Positions 26,891 to 56,655 of a DNA stretch of 64,000 nucleotides are shown here, piece by piece. Within the stretch, counting starts at the first letter, position 1; every line of letters begins with the position of its first letter. Source of the DNA: Protonemura montana (lineage: Eukaryota; Arthropoda; Insecta; Plecoptera; Nemouridae); assembly GCA_947568835.1 (NCBI GenBank), contig OX387602.1, positions 31,110,133 through 31,174,132 of the forward strand, written 5' to 3'. A model generated the notes under the pieces. It saw nothing but the letters and a program-made list of their open reading frames with translations. It was not told the DNA's origin and ran no database searches. The position numbers and the translations under genes were made by a program.

Positions 26891-29800
26891 TCATTTTATT
26901 GCTGCGTATTTATTTCAAGCCACGTTCTTAATTAATTCGTAACGGTCCGTGCTTTATCATCAGTCTATCGTTTTCCTGTTAGCTCGGTTTCTGACAAAAT
27001 TTTTCGTCTGTTCACCGCGATTGTTGGTAGCAATGGTTCAAGGTTTTGTCTTAAAATAATTAACGGCAAAGGCCAGAGTCGGTCTTTGAATCGGACCAGA
27101 AAGTTGAATTTGCAGTACAATTTCAATGCTTGAGGAGCCATTTAAGAATTGGCAAATCTTCCTTTTAAAGCATATGTTTGGTTGTTTTGTTCCCCAAGTG
27201 GGACCTGGTCGCGGCCCAATTATCCCGGTGCACCAAACACAGAGCACGGAAAGCCAGGACTTCAAATCCCGGTCAATTTTTATTACAACACTTTAGGGAA
27301 ATGGGAAATCATGTATTATAACAATGATATAATAATAATGATTATTATTAAGTAAACATATATTATATGAAATATTCTAACTTTATATATTATTAAATTA
27401 ATTGTGTACATAGCATATAAATATGAGATAGTACAAAACTGTTGTTTGTGAGAGTTGCTAGTTGCTGAAACGAGGTCGTTGTGTAAATAGCGTAGGTTTT
27501 CTCATATCTCTAAACGTATTCTGTACATTTTGCACACACACGTCTTCTAGCTCTCATTAAATAAATGATTAGGTAGTAAAATACCGTTTAACTCGTCTGG
27601 GGCATTTCGCGAGCGTTTGCTCGCTGGGGCGGCTTGTAGATTTTGTGTGAATATGTTGAATTACGCAGGCTAAGACAGTCAATACCCTCGATGGATAGGC
27701 AACGATATATCTCTAGCGATTCTGTTAATTTATTTTGTAAATATGTGCACGAGAAAGTATTAGGGATTGGTGGAATTGACGAGGCAATAGAAGGCGCAGA
27801 AAGCAGACTTCCTTGCCGCTGGTTCTTGCCGAGAGGCGGAACTAGGCGTTTGAAGCGGCCCCCCCGCCGCACTTTCCGGCCAGGGGTGTGTACATATGAC
27901 AAACTTCCCGGCGGTTGTGTATTTTCGGCCTTCACCGGCTTGTACAGTAGTGCAATCGTAGCGAGTTAACCACTGCAGGGATTTCACAGGAATTGGTACT
28001 TTCACCTTTCGTAAACTTAGGCAAACACTTTTATTACAAAACAAGCCTCAACGCCGGCCTAGTCGGCCACTTGCTGTCGGACGAGACCCATATTTTAGTA
28101 ACGTAATTACGAGAAGGGTGGAAACAAGCGTCTACGTAGGAATTAGTGATTCGAGCGGCCGAAAGTCAAAATTAACGCTGTCTAACTAGATCAGTTTGAA
28201 ATTCTAAAATAGTATAACAATAATGATGACATATTAAATGCTGGGACATTCACACTTTTATACCTACATAGTTACATTACATCGATAAATGGTGACCGTC
28301 GATCGCAGATGACGACGCGCTAAAAATGTTTGTTGATGGTTTTTAGAGCGGATAATAGATTAAATTTTAATAACCCTGGACCAATTCTGCTGAAGTTTTG
28401 TCACATAGAAATGTCAATGTTTTTAACTTGAGTTATATTCAACTCTTCAATACATGAAATAAATAATAAATTATATGTTGGAGACGGCTTGACCAGCTGA
28501 TGCCAGCAAGTTGGCCGCTTGATCGAGCAAAATGAACGAACGAACCAACGAATGATTGTTCCGTGTGACTTGACTTCAGCCTCCATGAGCATCTCCCCAC
28601 CCGCTACCGAGACAATGTCTTGCAAAGCAACCGGCACGGTGAGGCTGTCACTCACCGTGCCGGTAACTAGGAATAATTATTACAATTATAAATACATGAA
28701 AGTACCTAATGGACTTGTGAGCAAACGCAAGAATAAGATCGTAGTATTTATTACTTGGGTAGTAAAATTGGGATGCATTATCAATGCTGATTATTAATTA
28801 TTATTAATAACATCATTAATATTATTACGAAATACTGCAATTTTATGTGTAAATAAAAGTAAAACATTGAATTGTTTGGAATTTGAATTATTGTCATTTT
28901 TTCACCCAACAGAATGTGTTTCGATTCACTTTACTGTCACCTTATCACAGTTTTTCAAGTCCAGTTTCCAAGAAAGAGCGCTTGCCATTATTCACTGGTA
29001 TCCAACTATCCAACTGTCACAGTACAGAATTTTTTCCCAGCTTTAAAAGAAAGTTAACACTGACAAAAAAAAACCTTGATTTATTTGTGTGAAAATGAAG
29101 TGGGGGGAGGGGAACCTTCTTCAATTTTTCACAAAATTCAAACGATTCCCGTGAGCTTACAATGGCTGGCTATATCGTTGTAGAGAGAATACTTTCAGCT
29201 AATGCCAGCTAATTTTTTTAATACAATAATCCCAGCTCATTACTTGTACATATAGTTTACGATGGGGCGCTCCTTTTCCTATTCCTAACTGTCGACTTAA
29301 CTTGATGGCAGGTTGAATAGGTAACATCTTCTTGAGCAACATTCAACCGTACCGAGTTCAAATCCCAATCGGTTCATATTTTTTTCGTCATAAATCGGCA
29401 ACTTGACTTAATTATTATTTATTATCGATAATTTTCATCACGTGTTTAGTAATAAATCCACAGATACGCACTGGTCCACGAAGATCTGTTTTATGGTCGT
29501 CGTCTATGTCGCCAGTGGGCCGCAGTTCGACTCCCGGCTGCTGCAACTCAAAACCACTCAAAACTCTTCTTCTGGAACATACTTCTGTTGAAGGGATGGC
29601 TATAAAAAGGTCAGAGGAATTCTTTTACAAATGTATTTACTAAGATATATTTTATAGAATATATATGTAAGATCTTTACCTCCTTACTTGAATATTGGCT
29701 GTTTGGCTTCGAAACTTTCCTTTTTTTAGTAAGGGGCAAGGAGTGAGGGGTTTCCTGATATTTCGAGTAAAACAATGGCGGGGGTCTGTGTCAGGATGGC

Positions 29801-30253
29801 AGTGCTCGGATTAAACTGAGCCAGTGCGATGACGATCATCTGGCGGCGCCGGCTGCGGTTGTTTTCAACTACACGTGGTCATGTTGGTACAGACCGAGAC
29901 TCTTATGAGTCGACCAATCTCGGGACATCAGCATCGAAACCTGGCGCCACCACTGGACGGCAGTGGTGAGGCCGGGTTTCAAAACTGGATACGGGTTGTT
30001 CTGCTAGATGAAAAAACTGGGAGCTTTGAGTAATCAAAAATATGACAATCGAAAAATATCTTCAAAGCTGCTGATTCAGATTCTGCGCCCACAGTAGGTA
30101 ATTCGAGCGATGAGGACGTCCTGGTCGATGTGATGAAGAATTCACGATCGAATTCCGGCCGATGAATGATAGTATTATATATTTCTTAACATCAGGCGTA
30201 TCAATATCCGGGTAACCGACCGAAGTCCAGCATTGACTGATCGAGTACATTTG
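26890..30253. other. Intergenic DNA, no gene recognised
   Basis: AT-rich, with many short unconvincing open frames. Two weak tRNA-like stretches lie at its right end: 29306-29392, with GAGTTCAAATCCC and a following T7, and 29470-29550, with CAGTTCGACTCCC. A perfect hairpin is listed separately. Confidence 0.5.
28630..28664. other. Perfect 14-bp inverted repeat with 7-base loop
   Basis: ACCGGCACGGTGAG, loop GCTGTCA, then CTCACCGTGCCGGT. It stands alone in AT-rich intergenic DNA and belongs to no repeat family seen here. Confidence 0.85.
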
Positions 30254-31943
30254 AAATCCAACAGATTGCGCTGGGGATCACTGTGCAGCTTAACACGACT
30301 GCGTGTTCGGTGAAACTTAACAATTAAGAGAAAATGGGGGCACTGTCACCTTACCTCGGGGTGAGACTGGCGTTTCACTGGTCCCAAATAAAGCTTGCGT
30401 TCTCCGTCAGCTTGTTGCAATTGGTGGTTGCCCATATATTTGAGTTGTCGAGTGCGTCTGCCTTGCTAAGTGAAGCGACCTAGTACCTCTACACTGCTAA
30501 GTATGGTGGCCGGGTCTAGCTCTTGCTTGTGAAGATCAATATTTACTGTCCGTGATATTTAAATAGTTTTCAATGATAAATTAAAAACGACTAACGGGAT
30601 TTCGCTTCTAAATCGTACTAAACAGAAATTACAATCGATGGCATGTACCTACCCGGTAGACCGGGTTTTCAAACATGAAATTCAAATAGGGTAATCTTTC
30701 TCTTCAATGTACGGCCGTCTACGTGGTGCAATGGTTTAGGAGCTGCTTTAGAAATGCCAAAAGCAGCCACTGCCTGGATCAAATCCACTCGACTGAGAAA
30801 CCTTTTTACCGTCGGACAACGACAACAACATCCAACATCCACCAGTAGTGACTGAAGTCAGGTGACTTATATATCTAAAAAATGCATGGAAATAAATAAG
30901 GCTGCTTGGTCGTGCGGTTAAAGGCATTGAATCCGTTGATTACATGATAATAGAATGGACAAAGCACCAGGTTCGAATCACGTTAGCGCCACGACGCACA
31001 TTCACACTTTTGCCATTTTTTAAGCGCATGTTAAAGACACTAGCAAAATTGCCGGGCGCTCCTGGCGCTTCGCGCCAGTCGCGCCCGCCAATTTTGCGGG
31101 TCGTTCCCACGTCCCCAAGCCCCACCTATACCCCGTGTGCGGCTCCTAAGTCTAGCATCAAGTATATAGGAACATGGGAACTAGTGTTAAGTACAAAACT
31201 AGCATCAGAGCCACCTGTCGGCAGAAATTGGTACTACACTCTGGACTTAGAATATTTCTTCATATTTGCTCAATTGTTATCTAACTCGATGGTAATAAAC
31301 AAAAAGGCTCTTGCGCCGGGAACCGAACGCACAACCTTCTCGATACGAAGAACAGCGCATACCTCAGAGCTACGCTCTACGTTTCAATCCGAGCGGGAAA
31401 TAAACCTACTAGACTGCTAACGATATTATTCTTCCCTAATTACCAACATGCTTCCAATCTCACAGTTTGGCAATTTATATTAACATCGAAACTCCGCCGC
31501 TGTTCATCTGCTCTCGTGGTCGAGCGGCTAGAGTGTTCTATTACAATGTTGGGAGGCCCATGTTCAAATCCCGCCCTCTACCGTTATTTTTTTCTTTCTA
31601 ATAAGTAATATCGTCAAAGATCTAAACGCCATCAGGCAATAAGCAAAGTTCAGAAACAGCGCCGAGAGAAATGAACTTGCCCCGGCATAGTTGCAAACGT
31701 TGGCCCCCTTGCCTCATCCCACCGCCCGGCACAGCGGCGCTTACCAACTCCATTAAGATGGACGTTCACCATATAGCAAGATCTATTGCGATAATGCAAG
31801 CGTTACAGCCAGATCGGAGAATCGTCAGTTGAAAACCGATGTCTGATCACAGGGCCTATAGGTTCTTTCATTAGTACATGAATCACCGAACAAGCATTCG
31901 TGATAAGTCGCATCGTGACCCCCAGCGCTATCTGTTGGATATT
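30254..31943 (+). repeat. 1.76-kb tRNA-like array, unit 1 (divergent edge copy)
   Basis: Left terminal repeat from 30254 (CAACAGATTGCGCTGGGGAT...), right terminal repeat 31880-31943. Modules: tRNA-like A at about 30722-30800 (box B GGATCAAATCC), tRNA-like B at 30905-30985 (box B GGTTCGAATC, T6 downstream), hairpin 31043-31097 with perfect outer stem GGGCGC/GCGCCC, tRNA-like C on the minus strand about 31310-31383, and tRNA-like D at 31512-31583 followed by a T-rich tract. Confidence 0.9.
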
Positions 31944-32062
31944 ATTTTTGAAGTTGGATATCATGATATTAATGGATTTTATTTTGGATGTAAGTATTTG
32001 ATATTAAATATTTTATTTAATTAAACAAAAATATAAATCTCAGAAAATATCATAGTACATTT

Positions 32063-33703
32063 AATATCCGCCAGATTTCGCTGGGGGTCACGTTGCGACT
32101 TAACACTACTGCGTGTTCGGTGAAACTTAACAAATAAGAATAAATGGAATACCCGTTCTCGATCAACGGGCATCAAGTGGCGTTGTGCCAGTCGGGCTCC
32201 AATGCTCGCACATTTGAGACCGATCGTGGCAAATGGTGACACCCATTAATGTAGTTGCCGAGGGCTTCCGCATTGCTATTTGCGCCGGCAGGGTATAGCC
32301 CATGTTTGCGATGACGAATAACAATTGTTCATGTTATTTAAATAATTTTTAATGATAAATTCCCGGACAGCAAACGGAAATGCGCTTCAAACCAAACTAA
32401 ATAGAACGTACGGTCGATGTCCTTTCAAAAAGGCGGCGTTTGAAAAAATGAAATTAAAATAGATTCTTTTTTCCGCTAACTGTATGGCAGTCTGCATGGC
32501 ACAATGGAATAGTCGCTGCTTCGGTTACGTCGAAATCATCCGCCACCTGGATCGAATCCACTCGACGGAGGAACATTTTACCGTTTGGAGAACGACATCC
32601 AACAAAAACCAGTGGTAGCTCGAGTCAGAAGACTTCTATATCTAAAAAATGCTGAGATAAATATGAGTCCACTTGGTCGAGTGGTTAAAGGCATTGAATT
32701 GGTCTCTGTTATGAATGCCGAGAAGTCTGGGTTCGAATCACGCGAGAAAGTTTATAATTTTTTTTTTTTTTTTTTAAGCGCATGTTTAAGACACTAGCAA
32801 AATTGCCGGGCGCTCCTGGCGCTTCGCGCCAGTCGCCCCCGCCAATTTTGCGGGACGTTCCCACGACCCCAAACCCCACCTATACCCCGTGTGCGGCTCC
32901 TAAGTCTAGCACCAAGTATATAGGAACATGGGAACTAGTGTTAAGTACAAAACTAGCATCAGAGCCACCTGTCGGCAGAAATTGGTACTACACTCTGGAC
33001 TTGGAATAATTTTTCATATTTGCTCAATTGTTATCTAACTCGATAATAATAAACAAAAAGGCTCCTGCGCCGGGAACCGAACGCACAACCCTCTCGATAC
33101 GAAGAACAGCGCATACCTCGGAGCTACGCTCTACGTTTCAATCCGAGCGGGAAATAAACCTACTAGACTGCTAACGATATTATTCTTCCCTAATTACCAA
33201 CATGCTTCCAATCTCACAGTTTGGCAATATATATATTAACATCGAAACTCCACCGCTGTTCATCTGCTCTCGTGGTCGAGCGGCTAGAGTGTTCTATTAC
33301 AATGCGGGAAGGCCCATGTTCAATTCCCGCCGTCTGCCGTTTTTTTTTTCTTTCCAATAAGCAATATAGTCAAAGATCTGAGCGCCATCAGGCAGTTAGA
33401 AAAGTACAGAAACAGCGCTGAAAGAAATGAGCTAGCCCCGGCATAGTTGCAAACGTTGGCCCCCTCGCCTACACCCACCACCCGGCACAGCGGCGCTCAC
33501 CAACTCCATGAAGATGGGCGCTCACCACATGGCGAGATCTGTCGCGACAATGCAACGGTTACAGCCCGACCGACCGGAGGAACGCCAGTCAAACTCCGAT
33601 GTCAGATCACAGGGCCAATAGCTTCTTTCATCTGTAAATGAATCACCGAACAAGCATTAGTGTTAAGTCGCATCGTGACCCCCAGCGCTATCTGTTGGAT
33701 ATT
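32063..33703 (+). repeat. 1.76-kb tRNA-like array, unit 2 (reference copy)
   Basis: The inverted termini 32063-32127 and 33640-33703 share CCGAACA/TGTTCGG, GTTAAGTCGCA and GTGACCCCCAGCG. Modules: A (box A TGGCACAATGG 32497-32507, box B GGATCGAATCC 32549-32559); B (TGGTCGAGTGG 32674-32684, GGTTCGAATC 32730-32739, long T tract to 32775); hairpin 32797-32851; C on the minus strand 33060-33133 followed by T5; D (TGGTCGAGCGG 33273-33283, GTTCAATTC 33318-33326, T10 at 33340-33349). A 119-bp AT-rich spacer follows. Confidence 0.95.
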
Positions 33704-33822
33704 ATTTTTGAAGTTGGATATTATGATATTAATGGATTTTATTTTGGATACAAGTATTTGATATTAAATATTTAATTTAATTAAACAAAAATATAAATCT
33801 CAGAAAATATCATAGTACATTT

Positions 33823-35464
33823 AATATCCGCCAGATTTCGCTGGGGGTCACGTTGCGACTTAACACTACTGCGTGTTCGGTGAAACTTAACAAATAAGAA
33901 TAAATGGAATACCCGTTCTCGATCAACGGGCATCAAGTGGCGTTGTGCCAGTCGGGCTCCAATGCTCGCACATTTGAGACTGATCGTGGCAAATGGTGAC
34001 ACCCATTAATGAAGTTGCCGAGGGCTTCCGCATTGCTATTTGCGCCGGCAGGGTATAGCCCATGTCTGCGATGACGAATAACAATTGTTCATGTTATTTA
34101 AATAATTTTTAATGATAAATTCCCGGACAGCAAACGGAAATGCGCTTCTAAACCAAACTAAATAGAACGTACGGTCGATGTCCTTTCAAAAAGGCGGCGT
34201 TTGAAAAAATGAAATTAAAATAGATTCTTTTTTCCGCTAACTGTATGGCAGTCTGCATGGCACAATGGAATAGTCGCTGCTTCGGTTACGTCGAAATCAT
34301 CCGCCACCTGGATCGAATCCACTCGACGGAGGAACATTTTACCGTTTGGAGAACGACATCCAACAAAAACCAGTGGTAGCTCGAGTCAGAAGACTTCTAT
34401 ATCTAAAAAAATGCTGAGATAAACATGAGTCCACTTGGTCGAGTGGTTAAAGGCATTGAATTGGTCTCTCTCATGAATGCCGAGAAGTCTGGGTTCGAAT
34501 CACGCGAGACAGTTTTATATATTTTTTTTTTTTTTTTAAGCGCATGTTTAAGACACTAGCAAAATTACCGGGCGCTCCTGGCGCTTCGCGCCAGTCGCCC
34601 CCGCCAATTTTGCGGGACGTTCCAACGACCCCAAACCCCACCTATACCCCGTGTGCGGCTCCTAAGTCTAGCACCAAGTATATAGGAACATGGGAACTAG
34701 TGTTAAGTACAAAACTAGCATCAGAGCCACCTGTCGGCAGAAATTGGTACTACACTCTGGACTTAGAATAATTTTTCATATTTGCTCAATTGTTATCTAA
34801 CTCGATTGTAATAAACAAAAAGGCTCCTGCGCCGGGAACCGAACGCACAACCCTCTCGATTCGAAGAACAGCGCATACCTCGGAGCTACGCTCTACGTTT
34901 CAATCCAAGCGGGAAATAAACCTACTAGACTGCTAACGATATTATTCTTCCCTAATTACCAACATGCTTCCAATCTCACAGTTTGGCAATATATATATTA
35001 ACATCGAAACTCCACCGCTGTTCATCTGCTCTCGTGGTCGAGCGGCTAGAGTGTTCTATTACAATGCGGGAAGGCCCATGTTCAAATCCCGCCGTCTGCC
35101 GTTTTTTTTTCTTTCCAATAAGCAATATAGTCAAAGATCTGAGCGCCATCAGGCAGTTAGAAAAGTACAGAAACAGCGCCGAAAGAAATGAGCTAGCCCC
35201 GGCATAGTTGCAAACGTTGGCCCCCTCGCCTACACCCACCACCCGGCACAGCGGCGCTCACCAACTCCATGAAGATGGACGCTCACCACATGGCGAGATC
35301 TGTTGCGACAATGCAACGGTTACAGCCCGACCGACCGGAGGAACGCCAGTCAAACTTTGATGTCAGATCACAGGGCCAATAGCTTCTTTCATTAGTACAT
35401 GAATCACCGAACAAGCATTCGTGTTAAGTCGCATCGTGACGCCCAGCGCTATCTGTTGGATATT
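33823..35464 (+). repeat. 1.76-kb tRNA-like array, unit 3
   Basis: Same order of modules as unit 2, period 1760-1762 bp. It is almost identical to unit 4, including the rare GTGACGCCCAGCG variant in the right terminal repeat. Confidence 0.95.
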
Positions 35465-35583
35465 ATTTTTGAAGTTGGATATTATGATATTAATGGATTT
35501 TATTTTGGATACAAGTATTTGATATTAAATATTTAATTTAATTAAACAAAAATATAAATCTCAGAAAATATCATAGTACATTT

Positions 35584-37225
35584 AATATCCGCCAGATTTC
35601 GCTGGGGGTCACGTTGCGACTTAACACTACTGCGTGTTCGGTGAAACTTAACAAATAAGAATAAATGGAATACCCGTTCTCGATCAACGGGCATCAAGTG
35701 GCGTTGTGCCAGTCGGGCTCCAATGCTCGCACATTTGAGACTGATCGTGGCAAATGGTGACACCCATTAATGAAGTTGCCGAGGGCTTCCGCATTGCTAT
35801 TTGCGCCGGCAGGGTATAGCCCATGTCTGCGATGACGAATAACAATTGTTCATGTTATTTAAATAATTTTTAATGATAAATTCCCGGACAGCAAACGGAA
35901 ATGCGCTTCTAAACCAAACTAAATAGAACGTACGGTCGATGTCCTTTCAAAAAGGCGGCGTTTGAAAAAATGAAATTAAAATAGATTCTTTTTTCCGCTA
36001 ACTGTATGGCAGTCTGCATGGCACAATGGAATAGTCGCTGCTTCGGTTACGTCGAAATCATCCGCCACCTGGATCGAATCCACTCGACGGAGGAACATTT
36101 TACCGTTTGGAGAACGACATCCAACAAAAACCAGTGGTAGCTCGAGTCAGAAGACTTCTATATCTAAAAAAATGCTGAGATAAACATGAGTCCACTTGGT
36201 CGAGTGGTTAAAGGCATTGAATTGGTCTCTCTCATGAATGCCGAGAAGTCTGGGTTCGAATCACGCGAGACAGTTTTATATTTTTTTTTTTTTTTTTTAA
36301 GCGCATGTTTAAGACACTAGCAAAATTACCGGGCGCTCCTGGCGCTTCGCGCCAGTCGCCCCCGCCAATTTTGCGGGACGTTCCAACGACCCCAAACCCC
36401 ACCTATACCCCGTGTGCGGCTCCTAAGTCTAGCACCAAGTATATAGGAACATGGGAACTAGTGTTAAGTACAAAACTAGCATCAGAGCCACCTGTCGGCA
36501 GAAATTGGTACTACACTCTGGACTTAGAATAATTTTTCATATTTGCTCAATTGTTATCTAACTCGATTGTAATAAACAAAAAGGCTCCTGCGCCGGGAAC
36601 CGAACGCACAACCCTCTCGATTCGAAGAACAGCGCATACCTCGGAGCTACGCTCTACGTTTCAATCCAAGCGGGAAATAAACCTACTAGACTGCTAACGA
36701 TATTATTCTTCCCTAATTACCAACATGCTTCCAATCTCACAGTTTGGCAATATATATATTAACATCGAAACTCCACCGCTGTTCATCTGCTCTCGTGGTC
36801 GAGCGGCTAGAGTGTTCTATTACAATGCGGGAAGGCCCATGTTCAAATCCCGCCGTCTGCCGTTTTTTTTTCTTTCCAATAAGCAATATAGTCAAAGATC
36901 TGAGCGCCATCAGGCAGTTAGAAAAGTACAGAAACAGCGCCGAAAGAAATGAGCTAGCCCCGGCATAGTTGCAAACGTTGGCCCCCTCGCCTACACCCAC
37001 CACCCGGCACAGCGGCGCTCACCAACTCCATGAAGATGGACGCTCACCACATGGCGAGATCTGTTGCGACAATGCAACGGTTACAGCCCGACCGACCGGA
37101 GGAACGCCAGTCAAACTTTGATGTCAGATCACAGGGCCAATAGCTTCTTTCATTAGTACATGAATCACCGAACAAGCATTCGTGTTAAGTCGCATCGTGA
37201 CGCCCAGCGCTATCTGTTGGATATT
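35584..37225 (+). repeat. 1.76-kb tRNA-like array, unit 4
   Basis: Near-identical to unit 3. tRNA-like B keeps TGGTCGAGTGG and GGTTCGAATC, followed by about 18 T; tRNA-like D keeps TGGTCGAGCGG and GTTCAAATCCC with T9. Confidence 0.95.
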
Positions 37226-37344
37226 ATTTTTGAAGTTGGATATCATGATATTAATGGATTTTATTTTGGATATAAGTATTTGATATTAAATATTTAATTT
37301 AATTAAACAAAAATATAAATCTCAGAAAATATCATAGTACATTT

Positions 37345-38985
37345 AATATCCGCCAGATTTCGCTGGGGGTCACGATGCGACTTAACACTACTGCGTGTTC
37401 GGTGAAACTTAACAAATAAGAATAAATGGAATACCCGTTCTCGATCAACGGGCATCAAGTGGCGTTGTGCCAGTCGGGCTCCAATGCTCGCAAATTTGAG
37501 ACCGATCGTGGCAAATGGTGACACCCATTAATGAAGTTGCCGAGGGCTTCCGCATTGCTATTTGCGCCGGCAGGGTATAGCCCATGTCTGCGATGACGAA
37601 TAACAATTGTTCATGTTATTTAAATAATTTTTAATGATAAATTCCCGGACAGCAAACGGAAATGCGCTTCTAAACCAAACTAAATAGAACGTACGGTCGA
37701 TGTCCTTTCAAAAAGGCGGCGTTTGAAAAAATGAAATTAAAATAGATTCTTTTTTCCGCTAACTGTATGGCAGTCTGCATGGCACAATGGAATAGTCGCT
37801 GCTTCGGTTACGTCGAAATCATCCGCCACTTGGATCGAATCCACTCGACGGAGGAACATTTTACCGTTTGGAGAACGACATCCAACAAAAACCAGTGGTA
37901 GCTCGAGTCAGAAGACTTCTATATCTAAAAAAATGCTGAGATAAACATGAGTCCACTTGGTCGAGTGGTTAAAGGCATTGAATTGGTCTCTCTCATGAAT
38001 GCCGAGAAGTCTGGGTTCGAAACACGCGAGACAGTTTAATAATTTTTTTTTTTTTTTTTAAGCGCATGTTTAAGACACTAGCAAAATTGCCGGGCGCTCC
38101 TGGCGCTTCGCGCCAGTCGCCCCCGCCAATTTTGCGGGACGTTCCCACGACCCCAAACCCCACCTATACCCCGTGTGCGGCTCCTAAGTCTAGCACCAAG
38201 TATATAGGAACATGGGAACTAGTGTTAAGTACAAAACTAGCATCAGAGCCACCTGTCGGCAGAAATTGGTACTACACTCTGGACTTAGAATAATTTTTCA
38301 TATTTGCTCAATTGTTATCTAACTCGATTGTAATAAACAAAAAGGCTCCTGCGCCGGGAACCGAACGCACAACCCTCTCGATTCGAAGAACAGCGCATAC
38401 CTCGGAGCTACGCTCTACGTTTCAATCCAAACGGGAAATAAACCTACTAGACTGCTAACGATATTATTCTTCCCTAATTACCAACATGCTTCCAATCTCA
38501 CAGTTAGGCAATATATATTAACATCGAAACTCCACCGCTGTTCATCTGCTCTCGTGGTCGAGCGGCTAGAGTGTTCTATTACAATGCGGGAAGGCCCATG
38601 TTCAAATCCCGCCGTCTGCCGTTTTTTTTTTCTTTCCAATAAGCAATATAGTCAAAGATCTGAGCGCCATCAGGCAGTTAGAAAAGTACAGAAACAGCGC
38701 CGAAAGAAATGAGCTAGCCCCGGCATCGTTGCAAACGTTGGCCCCCTCGCCTACACCCACCACCCGGCACAGCGGCGCTCACCAACTCCATGAAGATGGG
38801 CGCTCACCACATGGCGAGATCTGTCGCGACAATGCAACGGTTACAGCCCGACCGACCGGAGGAACGCCAGTCAAACTTTGATGTCAGATCACAGGGCCAA
38901 TAGCTTCTTTCATTAGTACATGAATCACCGAACAAGCATTCGTGTTAAGTCGCATCGTGACCCCCAGCGCTATCTGTTGGATATT
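37345..38985 (+). repeat. 1.76-kb tRNA-like array, unit 5
   Basis: Apparently identical to unit 6 over most of its length, sharing the CGATGCGACTTAAC, GCAAATTTGAGACC and CATCGTTGCAAACG variants. In both, tRNA-like B has GGTTCGAAACA in place of GGTTCGAATCA, which breaks the box B consensus. Confidence 0.95.
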
Positions 38986-39104
38986 ATTTTTGAAGTTGGA
39001 TATCATGATATTAATGGATTTTATTTTGGATATAAGTATTTGATATTAAATATTTAATTTAATTAAACAAAAATATAAATCTCAGAAAATATCATAGTAC
39101 ATTT

Positions 39105-40745
39105 AATATCCGCCAGATTTCGCTGGGGGTCACGATGCGACTTAACACTACTGCGTGTTCGGTGAAACTTAACAAATAAGAATAAATGGAATACCCGTTC
39201 TCGATCAACGGGCATCAAGTGGCGTTGTGCCAGTCGGGCTCCAATGCTCGCAAATTTGAGACCGATCGTGGCAAATGGTGACACCCATTAATGAAGTTGC
39301 CGAGGGCTTCCGCATTGCTATTTGCGCCGGCAGGGTATAGCCCATGTCTGCGATGACGAATAACAATTGTTCATGTTATTTAAATAATTTTTAATGATAA
39401 ATTCCCGGACAGCAAACGGAAATGCGCTTCTAAACCAAACTAAATAGAACGTACGGTCGATGTCCTTTCAAAAAGGCGGCGTTTGAAAAAATGAAATTAA
39501 AATAGATTCTTTTTTCCGCTAACTGTATGGCAGTCTGCATGGCACAATGGAATAGTCGCTGCTTCGGTTACGTCGAAATCATCCGCCACTTGGATCGAAT
39601 CCACTCGACGGAGGAACATTTTACCGTTTGGAGAACGACATCCAACAAAAACCAGTGGTAGCTCGAGTCAGAAGACTTCTATATCTAAAAAAATGCTGAG
39701 ATAAACATGAGTCCACTTGGTCGAGTGGTTAAAGGCATTGAATTGGTCTCTCTCATGAATGCCGAGAAGTCTGGGTTCGAAACACGCGAGACAGTTTAAT
39801 AATTTTTTTTTTTTTTTTTAAGCGCATGTTTAAGACACTAGCAAAATTGCCGGGCGCTCCTGGCGCTTCGCGCCAGTCGCCCCCGCCAATTTTGCGGGAC
39901 GTTCCCACGACCCCAAACCCCACCTATACCCCGTGTGCGGCTCCTAAGTCTAGCACCAAGTATATAGGAACATGGGAACTAGTGTTAAGTACAAAACTAG
40001 CATCAGAGCCACCTGTCGGCAGAAATTGGTACTACACTCTGGACTTAGAATAATTTTTCATATTTGCTCAATTGTTATCTAACTCGATTGTAATAAACAA
40101 AAAGGCTCCTGCGCCGGGAACCGAACGCACAACCCTCTCGATTCGAAGAACAGCGCATACCTCGGAGCTACGCTCTACGTTTCAATCCAAACGGGAAATA
40201 AACCTACTAGACTGCTAACGATATTATTCTTCCCTAATTACCAACATGCTTCCAATCTCACAGTTAGGCAATATATATTAACATCGAAACTCCACCGCTG
40301 TTCATCTGCTCTCGTGGTCGAGCGGCTAGAGTGTTCTATTACAATGCGGGAAGGCCCATGTTCAAATCCCGCCGTCTGCCGTTTTTTTTTTCTTTCCAAT
40401 AAGCAATATAGTCAAAGATCTGAGCGCCATCAGGCAGTTAGAAAAGTACAGAAACAGCGCCGAAAGAAATGAGCTAGCCCCGGCATCGTTGCAAACGTTG
40501 GCCCCCTCGCCTACACCCACCACCCGGCACAGCGGCGCTCACCAACTCCATGAAGATGGGCGCTCACCACATGGCGAGATCTGTCGCGACAATGCAACGG
40601 TTACAGCCCGACCGACCGGAGGAACGCCAGTCAAACTCCGATGTCAGATCACAGGGCCAATAGCTTCTTTCATCTGTAAATGAATCACCGAACAAGCATT
40701 AGTGTTAAGTCGCATCGTGACCCCCAGCGCTATCTGTTGGATATT
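39105..40745 (+). repeat. 1.76-kb tRNA-like array, unit 6
   Basis: Near-perfect duplicate of unit 5, but its right end (CATCTGTAAATGAATCACCG, CATTAGTGTTAAG) matches unit 2, suggesting exchange between units. Confidence 0.95.
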
Positions 40746-40864
40746 ATGTTGGAAGTTAGATATCATGATATTAATGGATTTTATTTTGGATATAAGTATT
40801 TGATATTAAATATTTACTTTGATTTCACAGAAATATAAATCTTGGAAAATATCGTAGTACATTT

Positions 40865-42488
40865 AATATCCACCAGATTTCGCTGGGGGTCACGGTGTGA
40901 CTTAACACGACTGCGTGTTCGGTGAAACTTAACAAATAAGAATAAATGGAATACTCGTACTCGATCAACGGGCATCAAGTGGCGTTGTGCCAGTCGGGCT
41001 CCATTGCTTGCACATTTGAGACCGATCGTGGCAAATAGTGATACCCAATAATGTAGTTGCCTAGAGCTTCCGCATTGCTGTTTGCGCCGTTAGCTCATGT
41101 TTGCGATGACGAATATCAATTGTTTATGTTATTTAAATAAGTTTCAATGATAAATTCCCGGACAGCAAACGGAAATGCGCTTCTAAACCAAACTTAATAG
41201 AACGTACGGTCGATGTCCTTTCAAAAAGGCGGCGTTTGCAGAAATGAAATTAAAATAGATTCTTTTTTCCGCTAACAGTATGGCAGTCTGCGTGGCACAA
41301 TGAAATAGTCGCTGCTTCGGTTACGTCGAAATCATCCGCCACCTGGATCGAATCCACTCGACGGAGGAACATTTTACCGTTTGGAGAACGACATCCAACA
41401 TATACCAGTGGTAGCTCGAGTCAGAAGACTTCTATAACTAAAAAATGCTTAGATAAACATGAGTCAACTTGGTCGAGTGGTTAAAGGCATTGAATTGGTC
41501 TCTCTCATGAATGCCGAGAAGTCTGGGTTCGAATCACGCGAGACAGTTTTATAATTTTTTTTTTTTTTTTAAGCGCATGTTAAAGACACTAGCAAAATTG
41601 CCGGGCGCTCCTGGCGCTACGCGCCAGTCGCGCCCGCCAATTTTGCGGGACGTTCCCACGACCCCAAACCCCACCTATACCCCGTGTGCGGCTTCTAAGT
41701 CTAGCATCAAGTATATAGGAACATGGGAACTAGTGTTAAGTACAAAACTAGCATCAGAGCCACCTGTCGGCAGAAATTAGTACTACACTCTGGACTTAGA
41801 ATATTTTTCCATATTTGCTCAATTGTTATCTAACTCGATGGTAAGAAACAAAAAGCTACTTGGACGGGAACCGAACGCAGAACCTTCACAATACGAAGAA
41901 CAGCGCTCACCACAGAGCTACGCTTCACATTTTAATTCTATGCGGGAAATAAACCTACTAGTTTAACATTATTCTCGCTTAAAGTAACGAAGATCTCTCC
42001 CAAATATTAATATGCTTTGCTTGTTTATAGTGAAGCAATTCATATTTAAGTTACAATGTAAACAACGATCACACGTTCTCGTGGTCGAGCGGTTAGAGTG
42101 TCCTGTCGTGGTGAGGCAAGACTTGCGTTCGATTCCCGTCACTTTCAGGTTTTTTTTTTCTTTGCATTATGTAGTATCAAGTGAATAGAATATTCCAGAA
42201 ACAGCGCCGAGAGAAATGAACTATCCGCAACATAGTTGCAAACATCGGCCCCCTCGCTTCATCACACCACCCGGCACAGCGGCGCTCACCAACTCATTGA
42301 AGATGGTCTTTCACCATTTAGCAAGACCTCTCGCAATGATGCAAGCGTGACAGCCCGACTGGAGTAACGCTAGTCGAACTCCGATGTCTGATCACAGGGC
42401 CTATACATTCTTTCATTTGAAAAGATTCACCGAACACGTAGTCGTGTTAAGTCTCACTGTGACCCCCAGCGCAATCTGTCGGATATTT
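40865..42488 (+). repeat. 1.76-kb tRNA-like array, unit 7 (diverging)
   Basis: All modules are present but diverged. The hairpin loop is TAC instead of TTC with intact stems. tRNA-like C is closer to a canonical tRNA (minus-strand TAGCTCTGTGG). tRNA-like D has TGGTCGAGCGGTTAGAGTG and GCGTTCGATTCCC. Confidence 0.92.
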
Positions 42489-42601
42489 TGGATGTTATAA
42501 TATTAATGGATATTATATTAGAGAATGAGTACTTTATAATAAATATTTACTATGAGTGGGTAAACCAAAATATTAAACTCGGAAAATATTGTAGTATATT
42601 T

Positions 42602-43580
42602 AAAAACCACCAGATAGCGCTGGGGGTCACGGTGCGACTTAACACGTCTGCGTGTTCGGTGAATCTTTTCAAATAAGATTGAATGCCAGCCCCTATCAAG
42701 TTAACTGTTCGTTAATGGCGTTGTCCATGTCAGGATTGAATACCTGCACAGGTCAGATCGATCGCAACAGCTGGTGAAAGCCCACACTTTGGCATTTCCG
42801 GGGGCTTCAGTACTGCTATTTGTTGCGGCCGTGTCGGGCTCTTACTTGCGAGGACGAATAATAATTGTACGCTTTTTTATATAAAGTAAATTCAGTATAT
42901 TTCGTTATAAGTAATGAAGTAAGTAATGAATTCAAGTAGGTTCATCTTTCTCGACAATGTATGGTCGTCTGCGTGGCTCAGTGGTATAGTCGCTGCTAAG
43001 GGGTCGTCAAATATACCCGCTGCATAGATCGAAACCACACGACTGAGGATGCTTTTTACCGTTGATAAACGAATTCCAATATTCGCCAGTAGCCGCTGGA
43101 GTCGGGTGACTTAGATATCTGAAAATTGCAAGAGAACACATATGTCCGCATGGTCGTGCGGTTAAAGGCATTGAAATAATTGATCACATGATGATAGAGT
43201 TGATGAAGGACCGGGTTCGAATCACGTTGGTGCCACGACGCGGTTGCATTCTATTGCCATTTTTTTTGCGTATGTTTTAAGACACTAGCAAAATTGCCGG
43301 GCGCTCCTGGCGCTTTGCGCCAGTCGCGCCCGCCAATTTTGCGGGACGTTCCCACGACCCCAAACCCCACCTATACCCCGTGTGCAGCTCCTAAGTCTAG
43401 CATCAAGCATAAAGGAACATGGGAACTAGTGTTAAGTACAAAACTAGCATCAAAGCCACCTGTTGGCAGAAATTGGTACTACACTCTGGACTTAAAATAA
43501 TTTTTCATATTTGGTGAAGTGTTATCTAATTTGATCGTAAGAAACCGAACGCATCACAATTTCGACACGAAGTACGTAAG
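42602..43580 (+). repeat. 1.76-kb tRNA-like array, unit 8 (truncated edge copy)
   Basis: Left terminal repeat with AACACGTCTGCGTGTT; tRNA-like A with near-canonical TGGCTCAGTGGTATAGTCGC; tRNA-like B with GGTTCGAATC; hairpin 43285-43339 with loop TTT. Homology fades after about 43580, so tRNA-like C, D and the right terminal repeat are missing. Confidence 0.9.
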
Positions 43581-44861
43581 TTAGGGAAATATAAAATAGT
43601 CCAATGTGTTTTAATGACAGGTATAAAAAGTTAAACAAATGCATATTTACTGATCCTACGTTAGCGAACTACAGTGCCAAGGATTGTGGTTATTGGTGTT
43701 CAGATTGCAAACAGAAAGAGAAATTTCACAGAACGACATTTGTGTCAGCTTTTATTTACAATTTGGTTAGAACTTGCATGAAATTCTAATAAATACAAGC
43801 AAAAAGTACCATAAATAATAGAGCGAATGTGGTGTATGTCATAGATGAGAAGTGTATCTGGGTCACAGCACAATGCACTCATTAAATCTACGGAACCAAG
43901 AGTATACCTGAATATCACGACCAATTACTTTATTTGCTGGGCCGTTTCTTTAGTTAAAGCACATTTCAAAAACGAAAATTATAATTCAACTGGTAACGGG
44001 GACTGTGCATTTTGCTTCTGTCAAGAAAAAGTGACACAACTTAAGTTAATACAGGAACTTGTCAACAAAATAAAGATACAAATAAATACATTATCTCTTC
44101 GAAAAAGTGTTTCACAAAATAAAACAAAACAGAAAATGGATCCGTACCCCAAAAGCATATAAAGGAAAAACAATGCGTTAAAAGTTTGAGTTGCAAGTAA
44201 CAAGCGTCATAAACCCTGACTAAATCATAACCGTAAATCTATTAGTATTTTTAAAAAGCATTTTGAAAAGCATTTTCAAAGGAAACAATTTTAGCGTATG
44301 GCCCGGCTCTATCACATGGAACAAGTTGTTATTCAAATCTTATAAAATGTCATCGAAAAGACCAGCAATTGACATAACAGCGAGGAAAGTTTGGTACCTT
44401 GACTAGTTAGCTACACAATAAGCTAGAATAAAGCAGTAAAGCGTCGTAAATAATACACCGTTAATTAGTCACAGGAAGGAAGACAGGTTGACAGAAACAA
44501 TACCAATGCCTGGCAGTCCCAATATAACGGACCCAAGCAAAAAGATTTCAAACGAAACTTCCGTAAGCCATTTTGCTGTGAGTCTAAGCCAGTTTTTGTA
44601 AAGGCAATGGCAGCAGAACTTCAATGTTAAAGATTGGTCTCTATGCTTGCCAAGTGACATGCTAAAATCATCATACACCTCGCCCCAATGCTTCGTCATA
44701 GTTCGTGATACTTTCGTAAAATGATGATTATAAGGTTACTTCACCGTTAGCGCTATGTATTGGCCTCATCGGCAGACAGCACAATTCACTCCGGCCGATT
44801 GGAATTGCAACGTACGCTGGTAAGGCACCCTTCGACTTCAGCCCGGCTAGAGGACCAGCTG
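43581..44861. other. Intergenic DNA, probable 3' flank of the coiled-coil gene
   Basis: AT-rich with no repeat or gene recognised. The part nearest 44861 would hold the 3' UTR of the minus-strand gene. A 76-codon minus frame at 44469-44699 lacks any family resemblance. Confidence 0.4.
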
Positions 44862-45101: not shown

Positions 45102-48100
45102 CTGCAACATCAGGCACACGATGAGCGACATGCGCAATATAAGCAAAAAATAATAGTTCAAATAATAAACTGATTCCATATACCACACTCAAAGGCTAGG
45201 ATAGGGAAGGTTAGTTTAGGTTAGGTCAAAATGGGTTAGGATAGGTTAGGTAAAGATAGGTTAGGATAGGTTAAATTAGGTAAGGAAACCCTGATGCTTA
45301 TGAAACTTGAAACAAGTGCCTTCAATGCACGAAATTGCGCATTTCACAAATTAATTAAAAAGTTATCCAGCAACTCCAAAGAAACAAACGGCAAACAAAT
45401 TCAAAAGTTCAAAAGTGTTCTTCAGTGAGACCTGTGGAAAATTTTGCATTAAGCTCGGGGAGGAACCAACTTTGCTAGGGTTCCGAAAGGTTTGCCAACT
45501 GGAAAATGATTTGGTGTGATCGCTGTGATGAGACAAAACCTAGAGAGCATCAGTTTTACTACGGGAGTTGGTTGTAAGGTTGGCTGCTTGCCTTGTTTTG
45601 CTGCAGCGTAGACTGAGTAGCATCGCGTAGTTCCCCAACCTGGGTCTGCAGCGCCGTCTTGTCAGCAAGCAGGCTTGCCAACTCCGTCTCCCAGTCCGGG
45701 GGAGGCATGGTCTAAAACACACCAAACAAAAGTTGGTAACATTCTTTAGAGGAAAGCCTTTTCTTCACATTAGGACCATTTTGTAACTGATATATTTTGA
45801 TATTCTTCTCATTTGATTATAAGTAAGCTATTCCTTGATGACAACATATTTTGGCTGAAACTGGAATTGAAAACCCTGAACCGTTCGGACACTTTCTCTT
45901 AACCCAGCGGAAATTGGAGCTCGAGGGGAAAATCAGAAGAATTGGAACCTGAATGATTACTTATTGAAGGAATAAATGGTAAAAAAATATATTAGGTTAC
46001 ATATTCTGCCAAGAAATGAAAGGAAATACTCTTTGACTGGGCATTTAGAAACACTAGAAAATTTTGAAGATGTCCTAAAAATTCCTCCAAATTGATCTGG
46101 TTGTTTGGTCAGTAGAGCAATAACAATAACTCTTTAGCTAAACTAATCAATCACAAGATATTGCAAATCTTCAAGTTTTGCTGGGCCTGAGTATTTAAAA
46201 GTTGCTGCCACAACAAGTGAAGGAAACAGAATTAAGAGGTAAGACGCTATTCAGGATAAGCAAATTTCAATCTAAACTCAGCAAGATCTTTGCTTGTAAT
46301 GGCGGGCAGTATAACAGCATAAAGTAAACTCATTATTTATTGCCAGACGCTTATCGATTCCCACGATAGCATTCTCGGGTCTTCTAGATCAACTTAACTC
46401 CCAGCCAGTAAGCACATCGACGGCAATAGCATGAGCCATTTGCAATTGAAAACACTTTACAACTAGGCTATCGAATTCTAAGCAAATAACAACTAATGTT
46501 TCCAATGTTTAATTCTCCTATGACAAAATAACCACATACAAATACAAACAATTCCCTTGTCCAGGCACCCAAAAGTGCATCTAACTAAAAAATTAAAATC
46601 CAAAATTCAAAGAACTAACATTTTTTTCCCATATTTTTTTTATAAAATGACATTAAAAAACTCCACACAGTGTTTTAGTAAAAAAAAAAAAAAAAATGTT
46701 ACCCGTTTTTCGAGGTCTGCTCGAAGCCGCTCGAGCTCCGCCTTGCAGTTCTCGTGCGCGACCTGTTCGGTGTCAAGGTCGCGTTGCAGTCTCGCGACGG
46801 ACGTACGCAAGACTCCGCCCATCGCTTCTGAGCGACCCAACGCCACGCGCACGCCGTCCAGAGTGTCGGCGCCCTCGGAGGCTAGGCGGACCATCTCAGC
46901 CCGGAGACGTACACACTCGGTCGCATCAGAATCTAAAGGAACGTAGCAGCTATGTTGGTGACACAGAAAAAGCTGGCACAGATATTCCATCCTTATGAGG
47001 CAAAGACTAGCACAGATAAAGCTTGCACAGATATTCCATCCATATGAGGCAAAGACTAGCACAGATAAAGCTTGCACAGATATTCCATCCTTATGAGGCA
47101 AAGACTACCACAGATAAAGATTACACAGATATTCCATCCTTATGAGGCAAAGACTAGCACAGATAAAGCTTGCACAGATATTCCATCCTTATGAGGCAAA
47201 GACTAGCACAGATAAAGCTTGCACAGATATTCCATTCCATCCAGTGATGTATTCGTAAAATTTTTAGTGGGGGTACGCAAAAATGACCCATTTTTTTGTG
47301 TCGGCGGGGGGGGGGGGGGGGGGGGGGGGGGAGGAGACCCAAGGCGAATGCACCGAAAGAGTGGAAATAGGGGGCTTCGGGCGCAGCTCCAAGTGAATTT
47401 TTATTCTAAGGTTTCTTTTGGAGCCAATCTACGAGTTTACGATGAAATTGGGCTTGGAATGACATGGTCAGAACTGCATTTTTAATTACGTAATGATTTT
47501 GAGAAAATTAAATTAATGCCGCCCTCTCATGTCTACACCTTCCCACATTGTTGCAGTCTTGAAATTTGGTGGGGATTCGGGAATCTGGTAAAAGAAAGTC
47601 TAATCATTTTAATCGAATACTGGTTTAAATTTTTGTTGAAACTATCCATAGATACGCGCGTACTTTCGCGTTGAGGAGATTACATCAGTTTCCACAATGA
47701 CTCTTTTTCATTGAACTCTTCTTCATTCGACGTTGGTGGTGTCTTCAACTTCTCCCAAACCAAATTTTGGTTTTTTAGGAGGGGCAAGGCCCGAAAGGGA
47801 ATGCAAATCCACTTGCTTCCTCTTCTGTATCTTGAATTGAACTAACTCGTCCAGTGTGGCTCGTATGTGGCAATTTGGTTATTGTTTGTATTTTTGTCTT
47901 TCCTGCGAATTCTTATTATTTGAAGCGGGCTTGCTTCTGAGAGCTTGCACCGCCGTGCGACGCCGCGAAAGCGGCTACCGACTTCCCTACGTGATAACAG
48001 TAATATGGTTCTAACTAACCCCTTTGTTGCAAGTCGCGACGCCGACATAGTTCCAGCCTACCTACTCTTAGTACGTTCGCATACAGTGGCAATCTTGCTA

Positions 48101-53632: not shown

Positions 53633-54148
53633 ATTATTTATTTGTGGTTTTTAAAGACGCACCGTTTTGACATCTGGTCATGCGGCACTGGTCTAATGGG
53701 GTCGGTGAATGAGTGGATGATGATGAACCTGACCTAGCCTAGAAGGGAGGAGGGGAAACCCGGTGCCGGCACGTAGCCTACTCCTGTCGAAGACCAAGAG
53801 GACCACCGGCTTAACGTCCCTTCCGAAGGACGGTACAACTAGAACAGCAGGATTCCTCCACAAATCCATGCTGTCGAGAGGTTGATAAGCAAGGCGAGTG
53901 AAGTTGCTGTACTAACTTTCATCCCTCCAACCTCTCTCCCGAACAGAACTGGTCATGTGTATGATGGTCACCCATCCAATACCTGACCCAGCGCAGTGTT
54001 ACTTAACTTTCATCCCTCCAACCTCTCTCCCGAACAGAACTGGTCATGTGTATGATGGTCACCCATCCAATACCTGACCCAGCGCAGTGTTGCTTAACTT
54101 TGGTGATCTGACGAGAACCGGTGTTACCAACACGCCAAGCCGTTCGGT
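53633..54148 (-). mobile_element. 5S-derived SINE, minus copy with doubled promoter
   Basis: Read on the minus strand: 5S-like head (AACGGCTTGGCGTGTTGGTA, ACACCGGTTCTCGTCAGATC), two promoter units, body with GTCCTTCGGAAGGGACGTTA and AGCCGGTGGTCC, then the tail. The tail points at the 3' end of the membrane protein gene. Confidence 0.9.
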
Positions 54149-55710: not shown

Positions 55711-56655
55711 AGTACGGTTTGGCGTGTTGGAAACACCGGTTCTTAGGAGATCACCGAAGTTGAGCAACACTGCGCTGAGTCAGGTATTGAATGGGTGACC
55801 ATCATACACATGACCAGTTCTGTTCGAGAGAGAGGTTGGAGGGATGAAAGTGTAGCAACACTGCGCTAGGTCAGGTATTGGTGACCATCATACACATGAC
55901 CAGTTCTGTTCGAGAGAGAGGTTGGAGGGATGAAAGTGTAGCAACACTGCGCTAGGTCAGGTATTGGTGACCATCATACACATGACCAGTTCTGTTTGGG
56001 AGAGAGGTTGGAGGGATGAAAGTTAAGCAACACTGCCCTGAGTCAGGTATTGGATGAGTGACCATCATACACATGACCAGTTCTGTTCGGGAGAGAGGTT
56101 GGAGGGATGAAAGTTAAGCAACACTGCGCTGGGTCAGGTATTGAATGGGTGACCATCATACACATGACCAGTTCTGTTCGGGAGAGAGGTTGGAGGGATG
56201 AAAGTTAAGCAACACTGCGCTGAGTCAGGTATTGGATGGGTGACCATCATACACATGACCAGTTCTGTTCGGGAGAGAGGTTGGAGGGATGAAAGTCAAG
56301 CAACACTGCGCTGAGTCAGGTATTGGATGGGTGACCATTATACACATGACCAGTTCTGTTCGGGAGAGAGGTTGGAGGGATGAAAGTTAGTACAGCAACT
56401 TCACTCGCCTTGCTTATCAACCTCTCGACAGCATGGATTTGTGGAGGAATCCTGTTGTTCGAGTTGTACCGTCCTTCGGAAGGGACGTTAAGCCGGTGGT
56501 CCCCTTGGTCTTCGACAGGAGTAGGCTACGTGCCGGCACAAGGTTCCCCTTCTAGGCTAGGTTAGGTTCATCATCATCCACTCATTCACCGACGCCATTA
56601 GACCAGTGCCGCATGGCCTGATGTCAAAACAGTGCGTCGTTAAACACCACAAGTC
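55711..56655 (+). mobile_element. 5S-derived SINE with seven tandem promoter units
   Basis: Head CGGTTTGGCGTGTTGGAAAC, ACCGGTTCTTAGGAGATCAC, CGAAGTTGAGCAACACTGCG resembles 5S rRNA from its start. Promoter units end at GTGACC near 55795, 55881, 55967, 56058, 56149, 56240 and 56331. The body 56395-56655 has AGCATGGATTTGTGGAGGAA, CCTTCGGAAGGGACGTTAAG, CCGGTGGTCC and the tail GTCGTTAAACACCACAA. Confidence 0.93.

What the first reader, a model, noticed from the sequence alone, without database searches (positions are those of the whole stretch)
30254..43580. Eight-unit tandem array of a 1.76-kb element carrying four tRNA-like modules, terminal inverted repeats and a conserved hairpin
The same ordered set recurs eight times: left inverted terminus, tRNA-like A (+), tRNA-like B (+), hairpin, tRNA-like C (-), tRNA-like D (+), right inverted terminus, AT-rich spacer. 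The four tRNA-like sequences differ from one another, so they are not simple duplications of one SINE head. I know of no described element combining several distinct Pol III modules with terminal inverted repeats in a satellite-like array. It could be a multi-tRNA non-autonomous transposon that became a satellite.
Basis: partly seen in the sequence, partly recalled or inferred. Interest (0 to 1): 0.85.

Follow-up and report, generated by a model that had tools for sequence, protein, structure and literature searches.

The report
Tandem array of conserved Pol III promoter modules
A non-coding repeat block in a probable arthropod genome packs four small RNA-polymerase-III-type promoters, a hairpin and inverted ends into each unit, and evolution has preserved the promoter boxes while letting the RNA between them change, which suggests that being bound, not making a particular RNA, is what matters.

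Summary
The array is real: seven complete units and a truncated eighth. It is no local artefact: related loci occur on several contigs, 24 in the capped listing. Each unit carries modules A(+), B(+), a hairpin, C(-), D(+) between inverted ends. The modules are not tRNAs (no Rfam tRNA match at E up to 10) but Pol III type-2 promoter modules. Across 8 non-redundant loci (64-79% alike) the eight A/B boxes average 0.844 identity against 0.66 background; none of 50,000 draws reached this. Box spacing is nearly fixed and a T run follows in 55 of 56 modules; pooled, the sequence between boxes drifts fastest. So promoter architecture, not RNA sequence, is conserved. Hairpin core (0.95) and inverted ends are also constrained. 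The array adjoins a dispersed left domain; a few loci have an inverted right arm. Best reading: a foldback-like, non-coding element whose unit of Pol III/TFIIIC docking sites expanded into local macrosatellites; occupancy as its function is inferred. Closest published analogue: the human 1q23.3 tRNA macrosatellite (PMC4041453). A CTCF-like motif is enriched in related loci, but no CTCF orthologue was recognised.

The parts
29002..30253 (+). Left domain next to the first unit; part of a dispersed repeat, lacking here the left end seen at other loci
   Evidence: 64 genome matches besides itself, all within 29002-30253 of the query (40 of 230 candidates scored); shared with flanks of several arrays; start of the domain missing here
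30256..32062 (+). Unit 1 (82.3-83.2% identical to U2-U6)
32063..33822 (+). Unit 2
33823..35583 (+). Unit 3, reference unit for the module coordinates below
35584..37344 (+). Unit 4
37345..39104 (+). Unit 5
39105..40864 (+). Unit 6
40865..42606 (+). Unit 7 (86.1-86.2% identical to U2-U6)
42607..43545 (+). Unit 8, truncated after the hairpin core (73.9-74.5% identical)
33823..33892 (+). Left inverted end of the unit
   Evidence: inverted match to the right end; mean identity 0.81-0.84 across loci
34258..34340 (+). Pol III module A: A box 34258-34268, B box 34310-34320, T4 run 34337-34340
   Evidence: boxes 0.82 and 0.93 against 0.66 background (8 loci); spacing 63-64 and T run at +15 to +17 in 14 of 14 loci
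34436..34537 (+). Pol III module B: A box 34436-34446, B box 34492-34502, T runs from 34513
   Evidence: boxes 0.89 and 0.95; T run at +10 to +35 in 14 of 14 loci
34552..34610 (+). GC-rich hairpin
   Evidence: 0.95 identity; near-perfect stem; weak covariation (2 pairs, 3 cells)
34611..34780 (+). Conserved stretch 3' of the hairpin; at related loci it holds a CTCF-consensus-like motif on the - strand, which in this window's copy falls outside the 2-mismatch scan
   Evidence: 0.95 then 0.84 identity; motif scan
34817..34888 (-). Pol III module C: A box 34878-34888, B box 34835-34845, T5 run 34817-34821 (all on - strand)
   Evidence: boxes 0.81 and 0.91; spacing 54 and T run at +12 to +14 in 14 of 14 loci
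35035..35110 (+). Pol III module D: A box 35035-35045, B box 35079-35089, T9 run 35102-35110
   Evidence: boxes 0.80 and 0.64; T run at +5 to +17 in 13 of 14 loci
35398..35467 (-). Right inverted end of the unit
   Evidence: 0.87-0.88
35468..35583 (.). AT-rich spacer between inverted ends of neighbouring units
   Evidence: 0.80 between loci; slower than the rest in distant pairs, not in close pairs

Best explanation
The array is a macrosatellite made by tandem amplification of one unit of a dispersed, non-coding, foldback-like element family. The unit is a package of protein landing sites: four RNA polymerase III type-2 promoters (A box, B box, terminator) on both strands, a hairpin core and inverted ends. 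SHOWN: the anatomy; recurrence at many diverged loci; conservation of boxes, terminators, box spacing, hairpin core and inverted ends; drift of the sequence between the boxes; homogeneous interior and divergent edges of this array. INFERRED: TFIIIC and Pol III bind the modules; the benefit lies in that occupancy (open, insulated chromatin for the element or its neighbourhood) and not in a specific RNA; arrays grow by unequal crossing-over; the family dispersed by transposition.
For: In 8 non-redundant loci, without the window, boxes average 0.844 against 0.66 background; best of 50,000 draws 0.817. 55 of 56 modules have a T>=4 run downstream of the B box; for A, C and D in the 8 loci 23 of 24 have it within 17 nt against 0.12 expected per site, and no module has an internal T4 where 0.30-0.36 per stretch is expected, except one locus with a duplicated module B. 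Five distant pairs: box 0.130, between boxes 0.342, rest 0.299 differences per site; four close pairs: box 0.062 against rest 0.107 (P 0.008), hairpin core 0.035 (P 1e-13), inverted ends 0.044 (P 1e-6). Modules: 25 against 0.82 expected, and 16 against 1.2 in eight loci of the sister architecture, two of which have none. Recurrent left end; inverted right arm at 4 loci.
Against: No expression or binding data: Pol III activity is inferred. Module D's B box (0.64) is not above background, and one of the four close pairs shows no slowing in boxes (7 of 88 against 74 of 1016). The stronger constraint on the hairpin core is not explained by Pol III. The AT spacer is not slowed in close pairs. No target-site duplication was seen, no transposase was sought, and mobility is best seen in copies without the unit. 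The window outside the element also has more modules (7) than its shuffles (mean 2.9, maximum 6 of 30). Selection during propagation of a selfish element would leave much the same pattern; the pairs share lineages.
Confidence: 0.47

Rival explanations
1. A purely selfish DNA element: inverted ends and hairpin core are transposase recognition sites, and the Pol III modules serve only its propagation (for example open chromatin during transposition). Present arrays are relics without a role.
For: Recurrent left end and inverted right arms; hairpin cores also in inverted pairs as in foldback elements; 653 hairpin 30-mers with up to 3 mismatches, 0 for the reversed control.
Against: Constraint is still visible in the pooled close pairs; several loci are maintained as homogeneous arrays; no duplicated target site seen.
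Confidence: 0.28
2. An RNA-producing array: short Pol III transcripts (about 85-100 nt) and the hairpin RNA are the functional product, for example regulatory or piRNA/siRNA-like RNAs.
For: Complete promoter-terminator architecture; hairpin stem near-perfect, with 3 double-change cells in 2 pairs, reached by 6 and 45 of 1000 shuffles; alignment folding of modules B, C and D about 2 to 4 standard deviations below shuffled columns.
Against: Module bodies drift at least as fast as the rest; no tRNA match; hairpin conservation is mainly of sequence.
Confidence: 0.13
3. A zinc-finger/CTCF-type boundary macrosatellite like DXZ4 or the human 1q23.3 tRNA repeat.
For: Motif CCASYAGRKGGCRSY (recalled consensus): 13 sites with at most 1 mismatch in 17 aligned units against 0.2 expected; 14 perfect sites in eight sister loci against 0.0 (copies are related, not independent). 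The human unit pairs tRNA genes with a CTCF site.
Against: The three window units scanned have no site with fewer than 2 mismatches, and one of the eight sister loci has none with at most 1. No CTCF orthologue recognised: best-scoring match 33% identity over query 2-243, highest identity printed 45% (137 of 964 candidates scored, list cut, no positive control). Most inverted-end versions lack the first G of GGC. The motif was chosen after seeing the sequence.
Confidence: 0.08
4. Degenerate tRNA-gene or SINE array, or assembly artefact, with no conserved function.
For: A/B boxes are typical of tRNA and SINE heads; tRNA-Ser-like hits occur elsewhere in the window.
Against: Selective conservation of boxes; four unlike modules on both strands at fixed places; many diverged loci.
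Confidence: 0.03

Closest known systems
Human 1q23.3 tRNA macrosatellite (tDNA VNTR; Darrow and Chadwick 2014, PMC4041453; outline, abstract and passages read)
   Same: Tandem array of large units, each with several unlike Pol III genes on both strands (five tRNA genes); units share 98% identity; human-mouse conservation confined to the tRNA genes and one CTCF site
   Different: There the modules are real tRNA genes and the unit is 7.3 kb; no inverted ends or mobile origin in the passages read. Here the modules have boxes without tRNA folds, the unit is 1.76 kb, arrays are many and dispersed, with inverted ends and a hairpin
SINE-derived satellites of squamates (PMC10702118; abstract and outline read)
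   Same: Tandem repeats derived from a Pol III-related dispersed ancestor
   Different: Derived from portions of SINEs; here four unlike modules lie inside inverted ends
Foldback and MITE-type non-autonomous DNA transposons, and satellites derived from them (recalled)
   Same: Inverted ends, non-coding, internal repeats, tandem amplification
   Different: Conserved multiple Pol III promoter modules are not a feature that I recall for them; superfamily and target-site duplication not determined here
DXZ4-type macrosatellites (recalled; mentioned in PMC4041453)
   Same: Macrosatellite whose relatives carry a repeated architectural-protein-like motif
   Different: No CTCF orthologue recognised in this genome; Pol III modules dominate

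Membership tests
tRNA gene tandem array | units encode tRNAs with a cloverleaf | tested here: not met
   no tRNA at E up to 10 in 30200-43700 or in 34200-35130 alone; ARAGORN none in the array
tRNA gene tandem array | internal A and B boxes plus a T-run terminator | tested here: met
tRNA-derived SINE | a single tRNA-derived head at the 5' end of a dispersed unit | tested here: not met
   four unlike modules in both orientations between inverted ends
tRNA-derived SINE | LINE-related or simple-repeat 3' tail, spread by retroposition | not tested
   no comparison with LINE tails was made
Non-autonomous TIR/foldback DNA transposon | terminal inverted repeats | tested here: met
   unit ends inverted; inverted left-domain sequence on the right of 4 loci, three of them with a left domain on the other side
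Non-autonomous TIR/foldback DNA transposon | defined termini in front of unrelated flanks | tested here: inconclusive
   19 of 62 rows begin at query base 1 (the query itself included); 14 of these 19 viewed, 12 share AGTRGATACTTAGC; six of the 12 share upstream sequence, six show none at E 0.01 over 86 bases, among them one copy known to carry units. Right end of unit-bearing copies not defined
Non-autonomous TIR/foldback DNA transposon | target-site duplication | tested here: inconclusive
   none seen by eye in the few ends read; no complete both-ended copy with units was obtained
Non-autonomous TIR/foldback DNA transposon | autonomous partner with a transposase | not tested
   no transposase search of the genome was run
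Macrosatellite | kilobase-scale units in head-to-tail arrays homogenised within a locus | tested here: met
   U2-U6 98.0-99.8%; the 12 other loci compared are 63-94% alike
CTCF boundary macrosatellite | CTCF binds each unit | not testable with these tools
   motif enriched at related loci; no orthologue recognised
Dfam/Repbase family | match to a catalogued repeat | not testable with these tools
   no repeat library available; a viral-contig scan with one 32-mer gave 0

The most novel reading that the evidence does not exclude
A new class of chromatin-organising repeat: a mobile, non-coding element whose selected content is a set of Pol III/TFIIIC docking sites with interchangeable RNA bodies, plus a hairpin core, spread and amplified into local arrays in a lineage that may lack CTCF, where TFIIIC-type docking could do part of CTCF's boundary work.
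Probability: 0.12. Interest if true: 0.9.

Novelty: new variant of a known kind. Interest (0 to 1): 0.62.

Why it matters
TFIIIC-occupied sites, and tRNA genes acting as boundaries, are known mostly as scattered loci (recall). A repeat family that conserves promoter boxes and terminators while the transcribed sequence drifts would separate 'being bound by Pol III' from 'making an RNA', in many natural replicates within one genome. It would also show a route from dispersed element to macrosatellite in which selection on docking sites can be measured.

Tried and rejected
tRNA or known RNA: Rfam gave sub-threshold miRNA-type matches, mainly to palindromic AT-rich stretches (best 42.9 bits against a cut-off of 144), and one 15-nt tmRNA match at E 0.44 in L061. 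Alignment folding: module A no better than shuffled columns; B, C and D about 2 to 4 standard deviations below them, but none below the lowest of 100 shuffles. Hairpin as a covarying RNA: only 2 pairs with double changes. Homology between the inverted end and the tail of the hairpin core: suspected (note), dropped because 37 and 48 of 1000 shuffles reached the score. CTCF reading: attractive motif counts, weakened. A longer inverted end at C2:3.65/4.24 Mb was judged by eye to reflect shared larger flanks. The right-end probe hit a very common 148-bp tandem family and did not delimit the element. Viral-contig scan for the hairpin core: 0. Searches for a described element of this kind: (listings only, except PMC4041453 and PMC10702118); one search was for CTCF background (PMC3491045 and PMC2749850, passages read). 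No described equivalent seen in these listings.
Full report
WHAT WAS CHECKED. The window lies at C1:31110133-31174132 of an unnamed 258-Mb genome of 34 contigs. A COX1 copy on C34 reads through without a stop under the invertebrate mitochondrial code; by recall its protein looks arthropod. I could not name the species. Array unit starts are 30256, 32063, 33823, 35584, 37345, 39105, 40865 and 42607; the eighth unit is truncated near 43545. Units 2-6 are 98.0-99.8% identical, unit 1 82.3-83.2% and unit 7 86.1-86.2% identical to them, unit 8 about 74%. Homogeneous inside and divergent at the edges is the usual picture of unequal crossing-over.

IT IS A FAMILY. A unit search gave 188 matches with only 29 of 495 candidates scored, so this is a lower bound; by my hand clustering the printed rows fall into 24 loci on five contigs. 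The window's own array and a nine-unit array at C1:30.87 Mb were not in those rows but appear. A 30-mer of the hairpin has 653 hits with at most 3 mismatches and none for the reversed control. Many of the about 100 printed hits are in inverted pairs about 500-600 bases apart, a sister architecture that also occurs in tandem with a 1.35-kb period (C2:1342000-1347200).

THE MODULES ARE PROMOTER-LIKE, NOT tRNAs. Rfam finds no tRNA in the array at E up to 10, nor in the module region alone, nor in nine related loci at E up to 2. But A box, B box and T-run combinations number 25 in 29001-43580 (24 distinct) against 0.82 expected, maximum 3 of 100 Markov-1 shuffles. The copies are not independent: the reference unit alone has 3 against 0.12, with a maximum of 3 in 500 shuffles. 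The rest of the window has 7 against 2.9, maximum 6 of 30, three of the seven being tRNA-Ser-like repeats. With a looser rule, eight loci of the sister architecture have 16 against 1.2; two of the eight have none, and some of the eight are related to one another.

CONSTRAINT. I aligned 17 units (three from the window, 14 other loci). To avoid circularity I used 12 loci, leaving out the window copies and the two nearest relatives, then the 8 of these below 85% identity to one another (pairwise 64-79%). The eight boxes average 0.844 identity (0.64 to 0.95), background 11-mers 0.66; the largest of 50,000 random draws of eight was 0.817. The exception is the B box of module D (0.64). In 14 of the 17 aligned units (window plus 13 loci) the distance from A to B box is 63-64 (A), 54 (C), 54-55 with one 59 (D) and 66-77 (B, leaving out one locus with a duplicated B module). 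A T>=4 run follows in 55 of 56 modules; the miss is module D of C1:4.21 Mb. The background chance of a T4 starting within 17 nt is 0.12 per site, and of a T4 inside a 54-66 nt stretch 0.30-0.36. No module has an internal T4 except the duplicated one. Differences per site in five distant pairs (one locus used twice): boxes 57 of 440 (0.130), between boxes 256 of 749 (0.342), rest 1388 of 4635 (0.299), hairpin core 105 of 1134 (0.093), inverted ends 93 of 646 (0.144), AT spacer 104 of 564 (0.184). In four close pairs: boxes 22 of 352 (0.062; P 0.008 against rest), between boxes 80 of 597 (0.134; P 0.06), hairpin core 32 of 916 (0.035; P 1e-13), inverted ends 23 of 524 (0.044; P 1e-6), AT spacer 50 of 468 (0.107; no difference), rest 427 of 3982 (0.107). 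One of the four close pairs (C1:29.33/29.63) shows no slowing in boxes (eight close pairs printed, four pooled so that no locus was used twice). Pairs share ancestry, so the P values are guides.

HAIRPIN CORE. Reference positions 34552-34780 are the most conserved part (0.95, then 0.84). Compensating double changes occur in only 2 pairs and 3 cells among 34 distinct hairpins, so sequence, not pairing, dominates; a DNA-binding site is as likely as an RNA.

LARGER ELEMENT. A left domain (29002-30253 in the window) adjoins the first unit here and at several other loci and recurs in the genome (64 matches besides itself). Its left end as seen elsewhere is missing in the window. In one search, 19 of 62 rows (the query included) begin at query base 1; I viewed 14 of these 19, and 12 share AGTRGATACTTAGC. 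Six of the 12 share upstream sequence as well, so there the similarity runs on; six show no upstream similarity at E 0.01 over 86 bases. Of these six only C2:8.60 Mb is known to carry units; three (L089, L090, L092) show no unit in the 0.9-1.2 kb read. At four loci (C1:22.77, C1:24.27, C3:22.28 and C13:12.18 Mb) the right side carries inverted left-domain sequence, with a left domain on the other side in all but C3:22.28; the right flanks of the window and of the other arrays in that comparison do not. So the whole resembles a foldback element with the unit inside, but its mobility is best seen in copies without the unit. I saw no target-site duplication and did not search for a transposase.

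MECHANISM. Shown: the conserved features are those that TFIIIC and Pol III read (boxes, spacing, terminator), with free bodies. Inferred: the modules are bound, and occupancy rather than a given RNA is what selection keeps, for the element or the host. The array lies between a MED13 gene (MID_MedPIWI domain match in 17434-17805) and a long open frame at 48504-50681 without a Pfam match, which fits a boundary role but does not test it. A motif like the CTCF consensus is strongly enriched in related loci, though weak in the window's own units; the best-scoring match to the human CTCF fingers is 33% identical and the highest identity printed is 45% (only the best candidates were scored, the list is cut, introns can split exons, and there was no positive control). 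I therefore rank CTCF low.

COMPARISON. The human 1q23.3 tRNA macrosatellite has several Pol III genes on both strands in every unit, and between human and mouse only the tRNA genes and a CTCF site are conserved (PMC4041453). The principle is the same; here the modules are not tRNAs, the arrays are many, and the unit has inverted ends and a dispersed context. SINE-derived satellites (PMC10702118) come from SINEs. In paper searches I saw no described element with this combination; subscription papers and repeat libraries were not searchable.

VERDICT. A real, constrained repeat, not found described in the searches named, with a testable function; new variant of a known kind.

Noticed in passing
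2493-2568, 19821-19896, 57999-58074, 61316-61391: Four dispersed copies of a SINE-like repeat with a tRNA-Ser(CGA) head that ARAGORN and Rfam recognise.
   Followed up: no
4221-4460, 53913-54148, 55709-56389: 5S-rRNA-like sequence with 91-bp tandem repeats of part of it, near copies of another dispersed repeat: possible 5S-derived SINE with internal tandem expansion.
   Followed up: no
45193-45285: Short degenerate AGGTT (TTAGG-type) array inside the chromosome; the last 600 bases of contig C1 instead are a GGTTT repeat.
   Followed up: partly
17434-17805: Match to the MID_MedPIWI domain: a MED13 gene lies upstream of the array.
   Followed up: partly
G000 C1:19.77-19.84 Mb, C13, C15:3.26-3.41 Mb: Dense C2H2 zinc-finger gene clusters; no recognisable CTCF among the printed matches to human CTCF fingers, a possible loss of CTCF in this lineage.
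   Followed up: partly
G000 C12, C14, C15 and others; L091:132-421: A 148-bp tandem repeat family ending in a shared terminus; 213 matches, lower bound.
   Followed up: no
L063:1-5201 (C2:1342000-1347200): Tandem array with 1353-bp period made of inverted pairs of the same hairpin core: the sister architecture of the finding.
   Followed up: partly
G000 C4:5.76-5.78 Mb: Mitochondrial-type COX1 copies in a 25.9-Mb contig, one scoring like the copy on C34.
   Followed up: no
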